From Microbacteriaceae bacterium (GTDB lineage Bacteria; Actinomycetota; Actinomycetes; Actinomycetales; Microbacteriaceae): DNA of 64,000 bases. The first letter of the stretch is position 1. Each line of letters begins with the position of its first letter. The notes below the pieces were generated by a model. It searched no databases and had not been told where the DNA came from. It was given only the letters and a program-made list of their open reading frames with translations. Of this stretch, positions 3,121 through 63,120 are shown in pieces. The stretch lies in assembly GCA_025463545.1 (NCBI GenBank), contig JAODAR010000011.1, forward strand, positions 1 through 64,000. The letters run 5' to 3'. The position numbers were made by a program, and so were the translations under genes.

Positions 3121-3231
3121 CTAGGCGAGGGCGTCCGGGACGGGCGGCTAGGCGAGGGCGTGCGGGAAGGGGTGGCTAGGCGAGGGCGTCCGGGAAGGGG
3201 TGGCTAGGCGAGGGCGTCCGGGACGGGGCGC
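3121..3231. repeat. 28-bp tandem repeat, 4 copies, directly after the uvrB stop
   Basis: Four head-to-tail units of 27, 28, 28 and 28 bp all begin CTAGGCGAGGGCG. A partial fifth begins inside the uvrB stop codon, whose CTAGGC is the same motif. The array therefore looks seeded from the last bases of uvrB. It fills most of the gap between uvrB and uvrA; the remaining bases up to the uvrA start show no gene. Because 28 is not a multiple of three, successive copies present TAG in different frames. Confidence 0.9.
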
Positions 3232-5298
3232 CTAGGCCAGGTGACCGGCGCGTTCCATGTTGCGAAGCTCACGCTTGAGCTCGGACACTTCGTCGCGAAG
3301 GCGGGCCGCCAACTCGAACTTGAGCTCCCCCGCCGCCTCCAGCATCTGCCCGTTGAGGTCGGCGATGATCGACTCCAGGTCGTTCGCTCCGTTGGCCGCC
3401 AATCCCTCGCGGCGGAGGTTCGGCACCGGACTTTTCTTTCGGGCGTCGCGGTTGGCGAGGAGCTCGGCGGTGTCGGCCTCTTCCCGCGCGAGGATGTCGG
3501 TGATGTCGGCGATCCTCTTGCGCAACGGAGTCGGATCGATGCCGTGCAGCGTGTTGTAGGCCACCTGCTTCTCCCGGCGCCGGTTAGTCTCCTCGATCGC
3601 CTGCGCCATCGACGGCGTGAGCCGGTCAGCGTACATGTGCACCTGGCCGGACACGTTCCGCGCCGCACGTCCGATGGTCTGGATCAGCGAGGTCGACGAG
3701 CGGAGGAAGCCCTCCTTGTCGGCATCGAGGATGGCGACCAGCGACACTTCGGGCAGGTCGAGGCCCTCACGGAGCAGGTTGATCCCGACCAGCACGTCGT
3801 AGATTCCGGCGCGTAATTCTGAGAGCAACTCGACGCGGCGAAGCGTGTCGACGTCGGAGTGCAGGTACCGCACCCGCACCCCGGCTTCGGTGAAGAAGTC
3901 GGTGAGTTCTTCGGCCATCTTCTTGGTCAGGGTGGTGACGAGAACCCGCTCATTGCGTTCGGCACGCAGCCGGATCTCCTCGAGCAGGTCGTCGATCTGG
4001 CCCTCAGTGGGTTTCACCACCACTTCGGGGTCGATCAGGCCGGTCGGACGGATGATCTGCTCGACGATGCCATCCGCTATGCCCATCTCGTACTTGCCCG
4101 GCGTCGCCGAGAGATAGACGGTCTGGCCGACGCGGTCCTTGAACTCGTTGAACTTGAGCGGACGGTTGTCGAGCGCGCTGGGAAGCCGGAAACCATGCTC
4201 GACCAGCGTGCGCTTCCGCGACGAGTCACCCTCGTACATGGCGCCGATCTGCGGCACGGTGACGTGGGACTCGTCGATCACGACGAGGAAGTCATCCGGG
4301 AAATAGTCGAGCAGGCAATGCGGGGCCTCGCCCGGGTTCCGCCCGTCGATGTGCCGCGAGTAGTTCTCAATGCCCGAGCAGAAACCGATCTGCTCCATCA
4401 TCTCCAGGTCGAAGTTGGTGCGCATGCGCAACCGCTGCGCCTCGAGGAGCTTTCCTTCCCGCTCGAGCTGCGTGAGTCGTTCGGCGAGCTCCTCCTGGAT
4501 GGTGCCCATCGCCCGGTGCATCACGTCGGTACTGGCGACATAGTGCGAGCCGGGGAACACCGAGACCGCTTCGAGCTTGCGCACGATCTCGCCGGTGAGC
4601 GGATGCAGGCTGTACAGCGCTTCGATCTCGTCACCGAACATCTCGATGCGGATGGCGAGTTCCTCGTACATGGGGATGATCTCGATGGTGTCGCCGCGCA
4701 CCCGGAAGTTGCCGCGGGAGAAGTCGACGTCATTGCGCTGGTACTGCATCGACACGAATTTGCGGATCAGCCAGTCGCGGTTGATGTTCTGCCCGACCTG
4801 CAGTGCGATCATGGCCTCCATATAGCCCTCTGGAGTGCCGAGGCCATAGATGCAGGACACCGTGGACACCACGATCACGTCGCGCCGGCTGAGCAGCGAG
4901 TTCGTGGTCGAGTGCCGGAGCCGTTCGACTTCCGCGTTGATCGAGGAGTCTTTCTCGATGAACGTATCGGTCTGTGGAACGTAGGCCTCCGGCTGGTAGT
5001 AGTCGTAGTACGAGACGAAGTACTCGACGGCGTTGTTGGGCATGAGCTCCCGGAACTCAGTGGCGAGCTGGGCCGCGAGCGTCTTGTTGTGCGCGAGAAC
5101 CAGCGTGGGCCGCTGAACGGCCTCGATCAGCCAGGCGGTCGTCGCGGACTTGCCGGTACCCGTGGCGCCGAGCAGGACGACGTCCGTCTCGCCGGCGTTG
5201 ATCCGGCCGGCCAGGTCGGCGATCGCGCCCGGCTGGTCGCCGCTCGGGGTGTACTCGCTGATGACCTCAAAGGGGTGTACGGCGCGCGTTGCTTGCAT
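3232..5298 (-). CDS. uvrB: excinuclease ABC subunit B
   Basis: Lesion-verifying helicase-like subunit that receives damaged DNA from UvrA and recruits UvrC. At 688 aa it has the full family length. Visible elements in order: Walker A GATGTGKSAT (residues 44-53); the beta-hairpin YYDYYQPEAYVPQTDTFIEK that clamps DNA; the Walker B-type DESH; helicase motif VI in QTIGRAARN; and a C-terminal UVR domain (LKFELAARLRDEVSELKREL) that binds UvrC. The ATG start leaves a 9-base gap after coaE, so the order coaE-uvrB is likely cotranscribed. The 3' end runs straight into the 28-bp tandem array. Confidence 0.97.
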   Translation of the reverse strand: MQATRAVHPFEVISEYTPSGDQPGAIADLAGRINAGETDVVLLGATGTGKSATTAWLIEAVQRPTLVLAHNKTLAAQLATEFRELMPNNAVEYFVSYYDYYQPEAYVPQTDTFIEKDSSINAEVERLRHSTTNSLLSRRDVIVVSTVSCIYGLGTPEGYMEAMIALQVGQNINRDWLIRKFVSMQYQRNDVDFSRGNFRVRGDTIEIIPMYEELAIRIEMFGDEIEALYSLHPLTGEIVRKLEAVSVFPGSHYVASTDVMHRAMGTIQEELAERLTQLEREGKLLEAQRLRMRTNFDLEMMEQIGFCSGIENYSRHIDGRNPGEAPHCLLDYFPDDFLVVIDESHVTVPQIGAMYEGDSSRKRTLVEHGFRLPSALDNRPLKFNEFKDRVGQTVYLSATPGKYEMGIADGIVEQIIRPTGLIDPEVVVKPTEGQIDDLLEEIRLRAERNERVLVTTLTKKMAEELTDFFTEAGVRVRYLHSDVDTLRRVELLSELRAGIYDVLVGINLLREGLDLPEVSLVAILDADKEGFLRSSTSLIQTIGRAARNVSGQVHMYADRLTPSMAQAIEETNRRREKQVAYNTLHGIDPTPLRKRIADITDILAREEADTAELLANRDARKKSPVPNLRREGLAANGANDLESIIADLNGQMLEAAGELKFELAARLRDEVSELKRELRNMERAGHLA

Positions 5299-61555: not shown

Positions 61556-62506
61556 TTATGAATCCTCCCGGTCACCGGACAGCAACAGATACAGTGCAGC
61601 CATCCGCACTGAAACGCCATTGGTGACCTGTTCGCGCACTGTCGATTGGGCCGAATCGGCCGCAGCAGACGAAATCTCCAGGCCGCGGTTCATGGGCCCG
61701 GGGTGCATGACAATCGTATCCGGACGCAGCCGGCCGAATCGTGCGTTGTCGAGGCCCCAGCGTCTGGAGTACTCGCGGCTGTTCGGAAAGAAGGCGTCGT
61801 GCATCCGCTCGGCCTGGATGCGGAGCATCATCACCACGTCGGGGCCGGAGGCTATGGCGGCGTCCAGGTCGAAGCCGATCTGCGCAGGCCAGCCGGACGT
61901 GTCGGCGGGCACCAGGGTGGGCGGCGCGACGAGTGTGACCTCCGCGCCCAGGGTGGCGAGCAGCCAGACATTGGACCGGGCGACGCGGGAGTGAAGGATG
62001 TCGCCGACGATGGTGACAGTGACGCCGTCGAGGCCGCGCCCCCGGGAAGCACGGCCGTGCAGCCGGCGCCGGATGGTGAACGCGTCGAGCAGCGCCTGGG
62101 TGGGGTGCTCGTGGGTGCCGTCACCGGCGTTGATGATGCCGGCGTCGATCCAGCCGCTGGCCGCAAGCACGTGAGGCGCACCCGAGGCGTGGTGACGGAT
62201 GACGACGCCGTCGGCCCCCATGGCGGCGAGCGTTTGCGCGGTGTCCTTCAGGCTCTCGCCCTTCGACACGCTCGAGCCCTTCGCGCTGAAATTGATCACA
62301 TCCGCGGAGAGCCGTTTGGCGGCCGCTTCGAACGAGATGCGGGTGCGGGTGGAGTCCTCGAAGAACAGGTTGACCACGGTCTTGCCGCGGAGGGTGGGAA
62401 GTTTCTTCACCTCGCGGGTGGCGACCTCGGCCATGTCTTCGGCGATGTCGAGCAGTTCGATGGCCTGATCGCGACCGAGGTGCCGGGTGGAGAGCAAGTG
62501 CCTCAT
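61556..62506 (-). CDS. pyrB: aspartate carbamoyltransferase, catalytic subunit
   Basis: Condenses carbamoyl phosphate with aspartate. The 316-aa protein has the carbamoyl-phosphate signature FFEDSTRTRISFEAAAKRL, FSAKGSSVSKGESLKDTAQTL, IRHHASGAPHVL, NAGDGTHEHPTQALLDAFTI and, at the end, HPGPMNRGLEISS. No PyrI regulatory subunit gene is present, as usual for actinobacteria. Its ATG overlaps the pyrR stop. Confidence 0.97.
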   Translation of the reverse strand: MRHLLSTRHLGRDQAIELLDIAEDMAEVATREVKKLPTLRGKTVVNLFFEDSTRTRISFEAAAKRLSADVINFSAKGSSVSKGESLKDTAQTLAAMGADGVVIRHHASGAPHVLAASGWIDAGIINAGDGTHEHPTQALLDAFTIRRRLHGRASRGRGLDGVTVTIVGDILHSRVARSNVWLLATLGAEVTLVAPPTLVPADTSGWPAQIGFDLDAAIASGPDVVMMLRIQAERMHDAFFPNSREYSRRWGLDNARFGRLRPDTIVMHPGPMNRGLEISSAAADSAQSTVREQVTNGVSVRMAALYLLLSGDREDS

Positions 62507-63120
62507 GCGCGGACTCCGTTGTTGTTGCCGGCGTCGCCGTTGCCGGCGTTGTTGTTGCCGGCGTCGCCGTTGCCGGCGTTGTTGTTGCTGCCGCCGTCGA
62601 TGCTGACGAATTCGTCGCCGTCGCTCTCGACCAGATGCACGTTGATGCGTTCGTCGGTGGAGCTCGGCAGGTTCTTGCCCACGAAGTCGGCGCGAATGGG
62701 CAGCTCCCGGTGCCCGCGATCAACGAGCACCGCCAGGCGCACGTTCCTCGGCCGCCCATGGTCGTTCAGTGCGTCGAGGGCGGCCCGGATGGTGCGGCCC
62801 GAGTAGAGCACGTCGTCCACCAGCACCACGGTCTTCCCGTCGATGCTTCCCGGAACATGGGTAGGGGCGGGCGTGCGAAGGCGGGTGCGGGAGAGGTCGT
62901 CGCGATACATGGTCACGTCCAGGGCGCCGACCGCGACATTCGTTGCCGCTGGTTCGATGCGGCGGATGATGTCGGCGATGCGGTGGGCCAACAGCACGCC
63001 GCGGGTGGGAATGCCCAGGATCACGAGGTCGTCCGGACCGCGATTGGACTCGAGGATCTCGTGCGAGATCCGAGTCAACGCTCGGGCAATATCAGCCTGC
63101 TGCAGCACAGTACGCGCCAT
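62503..63120 (-). CDS. pyrR: PyrR, pyrimidine operon regulator / uracil phosphoribosyltransferase
   Basis: UMP-responsive RNA-binding protein with weak UPRTase activity. The 205-aa protein has ESNRGPDDLVILGIPTRGVLLAHRIADII, TMYRDDLSRTR, the PRPP loop VVLVDDVLYSGRTIRAAL (about 97-114) and LVDRGHRELPIRADFVGKNLPSS. The last 25 residues are an extension made of 10-residue repeats (NNNAGNGDAG) not found in normal PyrR. The ATG is preferred to the preceding TTG for distance from GGGAG. An RNA hairpin over that SD is the probable target of PyrR itself. Confidence 0.95.
   Translation of the reverse strand: MARTVLQQADIARALTRISHEILESNRGPDDLVILGIPTRGVLLAHRIADIIRRIEPAATNVAVGALDVTMYRDDLSRTRLRTPAPTHVPGSIDGKTVVLVDDVLYSGRTIRAALDALNDHGRPRNVRLAVLVDRGHRELPIRADFVGKNLPSSTDERINVHLVESDGDEFVSIDGGSNNNAGNGDAGNNNAGNGDAGNNNGVRA
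62516..62597. repeat. 30-bp tandem repeat in the pyrR 3' coding end
   Basis: Two full 30-bp units (forward TTGTTGTTGCCGGCGTCGCC then GTTGCCGGCG) and a partial third encode NNNAGNGDAG repeats close to the pyrR stop. Units are in frame, and the array sits right before the pyrB start overlap. Confidence 0.9.

What the first reader, a model, noticed from the sequence alone, without database searches (positions are those of the whole stretch)
3121..62597. A chromosome-scale habit of short tandem repeats at gene edges
At least twelve separate arrays with units of 12-32 bp sit within about 100 bases of a start codon, stop codon or gene junction, or in a domain linker of conserved housekeeping genes. 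Units inside genes are 6, 12, 15, 18 or 30 bp (all multiples of 3); units past stop codons are 15, 17, 19, 28 and 32 bp. Different arrays have unrelated sequences, so they are not copies of one mobile repeat. The pattern suggests continuing slippage or gene-conversion growth, tolerated at terminal and linker positions. It may have been selected as a source of variation in expression coupling or protein tails.
Basis: partly seen in the sequence, partly recalled or inferred. Interest (0 to 1): 0.72.

Follow-up and report, generated by a model that had tools for sequence, protein, structure and literature searches.

The report
Short tandem duplications at gene edges
This stretch of an actinobacterial chromosome carries many short tandem repeats just past gene ends and in floppy protein tails and linkers; related species change such repeats by whole units, almost always without breaking reading frames, which fits ordinary duplication growth tolerated where it does no harm rather than a dedicated system.

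Summary
TRF (score ≥50) finds 17 arrays (1,313 bp, 2.05%) in 64 kb; codon-permuted controls give 1.18 ± 1.12 (max 4 in 40). 13 of 17 lie within 100 bp of a gene edge, against 4.56 by random placement (0 of 5,000). The window belongs to the Cryobacterium/Glaciibacter group. No own genome or strain of its species was reachable, so copy numbers of these very arrays remain untested. In 84 records (window included) arrays cover 3.60% of intergenic and 0.68% of coding sequence; they reach a flat plateau soon after stop codons and are scarce just upstream of starts. Between close species, lengths differ by multiples of 3 in 17 of 18 coding but 5 of 19 intergenic cases (rows dropped as told). The window (rank 1 of 77 at score ≥80) and Cryobacterium frigoriphilum are repeat-rich lineages. 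Best reading: recurrent local tandem duplication filtered by selection, with a raised rate or tolerance in some lineages. Tests for special roles (stop-codon targeting, terminators, rut-like composition) were negative or weak; the adaptive claim is unsupported. Closest known kinds: bacterial VNTRs and the repeats of Borg elements.

The parts
3109..3241 (-). 28-bp unit x4.8 in the uvrB-uvrA spacer; the first unit contains the end and stop codon of uvrB
   Evidence: TRF score 189; sequence read; UvrA/UvrB by NCBIfam
14100..14141 (+). 17-bp unit x2.5 that includes the TGA stop of a gene of unknown family (13317-14111)
   Evidence: TRF score 70; sequence; no Pfam match at E 1e-5 for the gene
25565..25718 (-). 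15-bp arrays coding an acidic EID-type repeat in the N-terminal tail of TreS
   Evidence: TRF score 97; TreS by NCBIfam; sequence
25753..25895 (-). 18/54-bp array coding a DTDAHG-type repeat in the C-terminal tail of the maltokinase-like gene; the next gene treS overlaps its end
   Evidence: TRF score 189; NCBIfam matches below cut-off; sequence
37453..37528 (-). two adjoining 15-bp arrays (x2.9 and x2.5, the second 100% matched) in the N-terminal tail of TrpA
   Evidence: TRF scores 58 and 74; TrpA; tails vary among relatives
39772..39817 (-). 15-bp unit x3.1, 10 bp past the stop of the Trp-operon membrane protein gene (39827-40537)
   Evidence: TRF score 85; PF09534
42038..42078 (-). 15-bp unit x2.7 in the N-terminal tail of TrpE (or just upstream, if the start is internal)
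   Evidence: TRF score 61; Pfam anthranilate synthase domains
44154..44187 (-). 17-bp unit x2.0 in the hisE-hisG spacer, 5 bp past the hisE stop
   Evidence: TRF score 54; PRA-PH for 44192-44455; HisG
45336..45485 (-). 19-bp (x3.7) then 32-bp (x3.2) arrays in the rsmB-rpe spacer, starting at the rsmB stop; pyrimidine-rich on the sense strand
   Evidence: TRF scores 105 and 185; RsmB-type, below cut-off; Rpe; RNA z +1.07
46283..46321 (-). 15-bp unit x2.6 inside the rsmB-type gene
   Evidence: TRF score 62
49385..49439 (-). 12/24-bp array coding GSS/TGSS-type repeats in a PriA linker
   Evidence: TRF score 82; aligned relatives have other fillings or none at this site
49868..50026 (-). 15/30/45-bp array coding SNS/AGS-type repeats in the first PriA linker
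   Evidence: TRF score 166; largely absent from the 11 aligned relatives
50295..50338 (-). 18-bp unit x2.4 in the metK-priA spacer, 13 bp past the metK stop
   Evidence: TRF score 53; S-AdoMet synthetase domains
54404..54475 (-). 9/18-bp array inside PyrF
   Evidence: TRF score 89; PyrF
59548..59596 (-). 24-bp unit x2.0 in the N-terminal region of CarA
   Evidence: TRF score 56; CarA
62517..62588 (-). 30-bp unit x2.4, 100% matched, coding NNNAGNGDAG in the C-terminal tail of PyrR
   Evidence: TRF score 144; PyrR; tail differs in a relative whose body matches 169 of 171 residues

Best explanation
Each array is an independent local event: a segment, mostly of about 9-50 bp, is duplicated in tandem next to itself, then grows and shrinks by whole units through slippage or unequal exchange. 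Selection removes most events inside folded domains, close upstream of start codons, and those that break the frame. Survivors collect past stop codons, in N- and C-terminal tails and in disordered linkers. The load is spread over the chromosome and is higher in some lineages, among them the window's and C. frigoriphilum, than in most of the sampled genus. Shown: excess over controls, placement, frame preservation and unit-wise length change between related species, flanking partial repeats (pooled relatives), lineage differences. Inferred: slippage or unequal exchange as the motor, and tolerance rather than benefit as the reason for the placement. A raised rate and weaker selection in the rich lineages cannot be told apart here.
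For: 17 arrays against 1.18 ± 1.12 in controls. Placement at edges. In 84 records 3.60% of intergenic and 0.68% of coding bases are in arrays; 3' flanks run at 3.7-5.3% from 10 bp past stops onward, 5' flanks at 0.5% in the first 10 bp upstream of starts, rising to 2.9-5.1% beyond 60 bp. Periods divisible by 3: 265 of 299 coding and 51 of 105 non-coding arrays (Fisher p 5.6e-16). Unit-wise changes between close species, for example a clean 16-bp duplication between two Cryobacterium at 95.8% identity. 70 of 112 exact duplications carry ≥3 nt of flanking partial repeat; one Markov control gave 4 duplications in all. PriA linkers, PyrR tails and TrpA tails vary among relatives. Density at score ≥80: window 0.141/kb (rank 1 of 77), 39 other Cryobacterium-group records mean 0.030; C. 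frigoriphilum sample 0.144, G047 sample 0.039.
Against: No strain of the window's species was reachable, so growth of these very arrays is not shown. Arrays in 3' spacers that do not include a stop have more multiples of 3 than chance (44 of 91, p 0.0036), which a pure tolerance model does not predict unless some are missed coding tails. Stop-including arrays have fewer (4 of 22; against 44 of 91 p 0.015, against 1/3 p 0.17). Spacer arrays lean to C over G on the sense strand (39 of 58). In the other Cryobacterium-group records intragenic arrays are only weakly enriched at termini (density ratio 1.1 at score ≥45, 1.4 at ≥60, 2.3 at ≥80), so the strong terminal bias rests on the window. By count at the loose score ≥45 the window is only rank 18 of 77.
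Confidence: 0.8

Rival explanations
1. The arrays are selected tuning devices: copy number alters coupling between neighbouring genes or the length of protein tails.
For: Arrays lie at the mak-treS and trpB-trpA junctions and after metK, rsmB and uvrB. A repeat between rnc and fpg1 in Mycobacterium tuberculosis was reported to track expression (PMC2734929, passages read).
Against: Placement follows free space with a flat 3' plateau. Stop codons are not targeted: 22 of 120 against 19.0 expected. The relatives examined carry arrays mostly at other genes. RNA structure is at most borderline.
Confidence: 0.1
2. Arrays past stop codons are C-rich landing sites for Rho (rut-like) that aid termination.
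For: Co-directional spacer arrays of the window (6) have 46.3% C and 21.6% G on the sense strand, against 33.3% and 31.8% outside arrays; pooled Cryobacterium group 36.5% C against 32.9%. The rsmB array folds weakly (z +1.07).
Against: The pooled effect is small and not seen in the other genera (11 arrays, C 36.3%, G 36.3%). In two relatives the rpsA array is followed by a hairpin-like inverted repeat, read by eye, so a terminator of another kind seems to remain there.
Confidence: 0.07
3. Assembly or collapse artefacts create or resize the arrays.
For: The window comes from a 167,879-base contig whose source is not named (length shown for its own PriA and TrpA); short tandem repeats are error-prone in assembly (general knowledge).
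Against: Arrays are short (34-159 bp), most with diverged units (74-100% matched). Periods in genes keep the frame. Like arrays occur in many other genomes.
Confidence: 0.03

Closest known systems
Tandem repeats of archaeal Borg elements (PMC9879509; abstract, section 2.1 and passages read)
   Same: Mostly unrelated units at each locus, in genes and spacers; units in genes divisible by 3; unit-number change between relatives; flanking partial repeats; often in tails or linkers; unevenly spread among lineages.
   Different: Borg repeats are perfect, A-rich and on extrachromosomal elements. The window has no array meeting the Borg criterion of ≥50 nt and ≥3 perfect units (0; 6 rows in 84 records, one array counted at two periods). 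Its arrays are GC-rich and lie among housekeeping genes of a chromosome.
Bacterial VNTRs / minisatellites
   Same: Unit sizes of about 9-60 bp, whole-unit length change between relatives, spacer and coding sites. Skew of repeats towards gene termini in prokaryotes is already stated in the abstract of PMC2621210 (listing only).
   Different: Polymorphism within the window's own species is untested; sites are ordinary biosynthesis, repair and replication genes.
MIRU elements of Mycobacterium (passages in PMC2734929; overlap of stop and start codons is recalled)
   Same: Repeats at gene junctions in an actinobacterium, sometimes overlapping stop codons.
   Different: MIRUs are 40-100 bp and scattered in 41 places; that they are copies of one family is recalled. 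Here units are shorter and each locus has nearly its own sequence.
Constant-size tandem repeats of Bacillus (PMC8161180; abstract and discussion read)
   Same: Different sequence at each locus; some species rich, others poor.
   Different: Those keep a fixed unit of 52 or 20-21 nt; here sizes spread from about 9 to over 50.

Membership tests
Borg-type tandem repeats | perfect repeats, ≥50 nt and ≥3 units | tested here: not met
   0 in the window; 6 rows in 84 records
Borg-type tandem repeats | units in genes divisible by 3 | tested here: met
   all window arrays in genes at score ≥50; 265 of 299 in 84 records at score ≥45, so not without exception as in Borgs
Borg-type tandem repeats | flanking partial repeats | tested here: met
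   ≥3 nt in 70 of 112 exact duplications pooled over 81 Cryobacterium-group records; not tested for the window alone
Borg-type tandem repeats | A-enriched units | tested here: not met
   co-directional spacer arrays: window 11.9% A against 18.4% outside; pooled group 19.4% against 18.8%
VNTR / minisatellite | unit number varies between strains of one species | tested here: inconclusive
   varies between species at 87.7-96.6% identity; no strains of the window's species available
VNTR / minisatellite | head-to-tail units of about 10-100 bp | tested here: met
MIRU | interspersed copies of one sequence family (recalled) | tested here: not met
   only short cross-matches (12-23 nt) between a few of the 17 arrays
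Bacillus constant-size repeats | fixed unit size (52 or 20-21 nt) | tested here: not met
   broad spread of periods

The most novel reading that the evidence does not exclude
Some Cryobacterium-like lineages carry a heritable 'duplicator' state: a repair or replication change raises short tandem duplication several-fold across the chromosome and so keeps lengthening tails, linkers and spacers of ordinary genes. Two candidates, NucS and the exonuclease VII large subunit (xseA), are present in the rich species C. frigoriphilum, so the cause would lie elsewhere.
Probability: 0.25. Interest if true: 0.6.

Novelty: new member of a known kind. Interest (0 to 1): 0.36.

Why it matters
It gives a natural series for asking how short tandem duplications arise and where selection lets them stay. 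Neighbouring species at 88-97% identity differ by whole units, and repeat-rich and repeat-poor lineages sit in one group. If the rich lineages prove to have a raised duplication rate, the responsible gene could be mapped by comparison.

Tried and rejected
Stop-codon targeting: several arrays (uvrB, the 13317-14111 gene, rsmB; uvrB, rpsA, trpA and metK in relatives) include the stop codon in the unit, which looked like a mechanism. Over 120 arrays touching 3' spacers of 40-600 bp in 81 Cryobacterium-group records (an array between convergent genes can count twice), 22 include the whole stop against 19.0 expected under uniform placement, so it was dropped. All-frame stop arrays: only 4 of 22 stop-including periods are multiples of 3, but this does not differ from 1/3 (p 0.17). 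Rho/rut: weak, see rivals. Intrinsic terminators: none at the two largest spacer arrays. Loss of NucS or xseA in the rich species: not so (both found in G001; 56 and 57 of 57 genomes). Search for a nearer relative: 57 genus genomes (best trpE DNA identity 83%), then 199 and 398 genomes drawn evenly from the larger family with priA DNA at strict E cut-offs (best identity shown 76%); none nearer, but the family was only sampled. P0242, a 448-aa TrpA hit, is an internal duplication of the enzyme and not an array variant. An open-frame test for hidden coding in spacer arrays did not separate the classes. A first exact-duplication control gave an implausibly high control count; it was repeated with N and low-period units excluded, and only that is used. 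The first Fisher test on periods was fed 266 of 299 by a miscount; it was redone with 265.
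Full report
What was examined. The window is a 67% GC chromosomal stretch with 48 genes called by a codon-usage gene caller. NCBIfam matches above cut-off identify uvrA, uvrB, rpsA, polA, treS, pyruvate kinase, trpA, hisG, fmt, coaBC, gmk, pyrF, carB, carA, pyrC, pyrB, pyrR and lgt. Pfam identifies trpE, trpC, the Trp-operon membrane protein, hisE, rpe, metK, coaE and a PLP-dependent enzyme at the trpB place. 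priA, rsmB and the maltokinase-like gene match their best families below the curated cut-off. gltB, gltD, hisF and hisI are names by position and recall. TrpE is 85% identical to its best relative in the genome collection, Cryobacterium sp. Y50; by PriA the nearest named protein is from Glaciibacter sp. 2TAF33 (72%). No genome is held for the window, and the nearest of 57 genus genomes has 83% identity over trpE DNA.

Is the pattern real? TRF at score ≥50 gives 17 merged arrays, 1,313 bp. Forty codon-permuted controls, with genes permuted codon by codon and spacers shuffled, gave 1.18 ± 1.12 arrays, at most 4. When only synonymous codons were permuted, 13.15 arrays remained on average, because most coding repeats are also at protein level; spacer arrays survive that control by construction. 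13 of 17 arrays are within 100 bp of a called gene edge (expected 4.56; 0 of 5,000). Of the 10 arrays wholly inside called genes, 6 are within 100 nt of an end (expected 1.80; 9 of 5,000).

Comparison with relatives. The orthologous region of 11 genomes, 52-80 kb each, carries 4-24 arrays at score ≥50, mostly at other genes than in the window; uvrB, trpE, metK and rsmB ends carry arrays in the window and in some relatives. Several lie at or within 20 bp of stop codons (rpsA, uvrB, trpA, gltD, metK). Sequences were read for a subset. The pooled set has 84 records (2.30 Mb): the window, the 11 joined regions, and 72 of the 80 loci; 8 were dropped as overlapping, one of them (L035) sharing only 32% of its test words. 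Arrays at score ≥45 cover 3.60% of intergenic and 0.68% of coding sequence. Coverage past stop codons is 2.3% in the first 10 bp and 3.7-5.3% in every later 10-bp bin to 200 bp. Upstream of starts it is 0.5% in the first 10 bp and 2.9-5.1% beyond 60 bp. This is what free space plus protection of ribosome-binding sites and promoters would give.

Length change. For 22 close pairs (87.7-96.6% identity) 108 flank comparisons were made of arrays at score ≥60. In 50 the flanks were not found, in part because partner loci are shorter. Of the other 58 I dropped, by hand, 9 rows with negative projected length and one with a 1,462-base partner stretch. Of the remaining 28 coding rows 10 have the same length, and 17 of the 18 differences are multiples of 3. 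Of the remaining 20 intergenic rows 1 has the same length, and 5 of the 19 differences are multiples of 3. With all 58 rows the counts are 19 of 20 coding and 8 of 27 intergenic. Rows are not independent, since some arrays were compared with two partners or in both directions. Of 13 alignments drawn, some show clean unit insertions, such as a 16-bp duplication in L004 that is single in L007 and a 20-bp unit gained between G053 and L031; others are less clean.

How arrays begin. In 81 Cryobacterium-group records (the window, 11 joined regions, 29 loci and 40 sampled stretches of two genomes) 112 exact tandem duplications with periods of 11-60 were found (50 in genes, 62 outside), against 4 in one Markov control. 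70 of the 112 have ≥3 nt of flanking partial repeat. This could be microhomology at birth or decay of longer arrays.

Proteins. PriA of the window is 767 aa; the other 119 listed relatives have 635-768 aa. Its two large arrays fall in linkers that vary in length and filling in the 11 aligned relatives; one relative has a different TNGEP/TNGES-type repeat at the neighbouring linker. The PyrR tail differs strongly from a relative (P0001) whose body matches in 169 of 171 aligned residues. TrpA N-terminal tails differ in sequence and mostly in length among the aligned relatives.

Lineage and chromosome scale. At score ≥80 the window has 0.141 arrays/kb, rank 1 of 77 records above 14 kb; 39 other Cryobacterium-group records average 0.030 and 37 records of other genera 0.011. 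By count it is rank 2 at ≥60 and 4 at ≥50, and by array bases per kb rank 4 at all three scores; at the loose score ≥45 it is rank 18 by count. Twenty stretches of C. frigoriphilum (326 kb of called span, 17 contigs, arbitrarily chosen) have 0.328/kb (0.144 at ≥80); twenty stretches over the single contig of G047 (382 kb) have 0.160/kb (0.039 at ≥80).

Functional tests. RNA of six spacer arrays has z from -1.88 to +1.07; the 14100-14141 array is borderline, with 8 of 200 shuffles folding as well. No terminator-like hit lies at the uvrB or rsmB arrays. Stop-codon inclusion fits uniform placement (22 of 120 against 19.0). C over G on the sense strand is a weak lean (39 of 58 arrays).

Literature. 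Seven searches ran. Cryobacterium with 'tandem repeat' gave one paper, on Acinetobacter plasmids. Microbacteriaceae with 'tandem repeats' and 'intergenic' gave one, seen in the listing only, that does not look to be on this subject. Skew of repeats towards gene termini in prokaryotes is known: it is stated in the abstract of PMC2621210 (listing only). The Borg paper (PMC9879509: abstract, section 2.1, passages) is the closest parallel. Also read: PMC8161180 (abstract and discussion) and PMC2734929 (passages).

Verdict. A real, well-above-chance feature, best explained as ordinary short tandem duplication under selection for frame and function, in a lineage with an unusually high load. Adaptive use is not excluded for single arrays but has no support here.

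Noticed in passing
window 53181-54101: One 306-aa frame matches both the actinobacterial integration host factor (residues 12-105) and guanylate kinase (120-297), i.e. an apparent mIHF-Gmk fusion. It has a best matching segment at 76-83% in 7 of 11 relatives; the extent of those matches was not checked.
   Followed up: partly
window 19783-27276, 7733-9174 and 13317-14641: A MalT-like regulator, treS and a maltokinase-like gene, and further genes in the two other stretches, have no tblastn match at E 1e-10 in the fetched regions of the 11 relatives.
   Followed up: no
L098 18762-19326 (G001): A 219-bp unit x2.4 with internal inverted repeats lies past rsmB in C. frigoriphilum; it looks like a dispersed element rather than a simple array.
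   Followed up: no
L096 18172-18663 (G001): 93-bp repeats with GGCACTCGTT/AACGAGTGCC inverted motifs lie past uvrB in C. frigoriphilum; a GAGTGCCG motif is also seen beside uvrB in PH31-L1 and C. melibiosiphilum.
   Followed up: no
pooled Cryobacterium-group 3' spacers: Arrays in 3' spacers that do not include a stop have periods divisible by 3 more often than 1/3 (44 of 91, p 0.0036). Cause unknown.
   Followed up: partly
P0242: A 448-aa TrpA on a 3,133-base contig has an internal duplication of most of the enzyme; possibly an assembly artefact.
   Followed up: no
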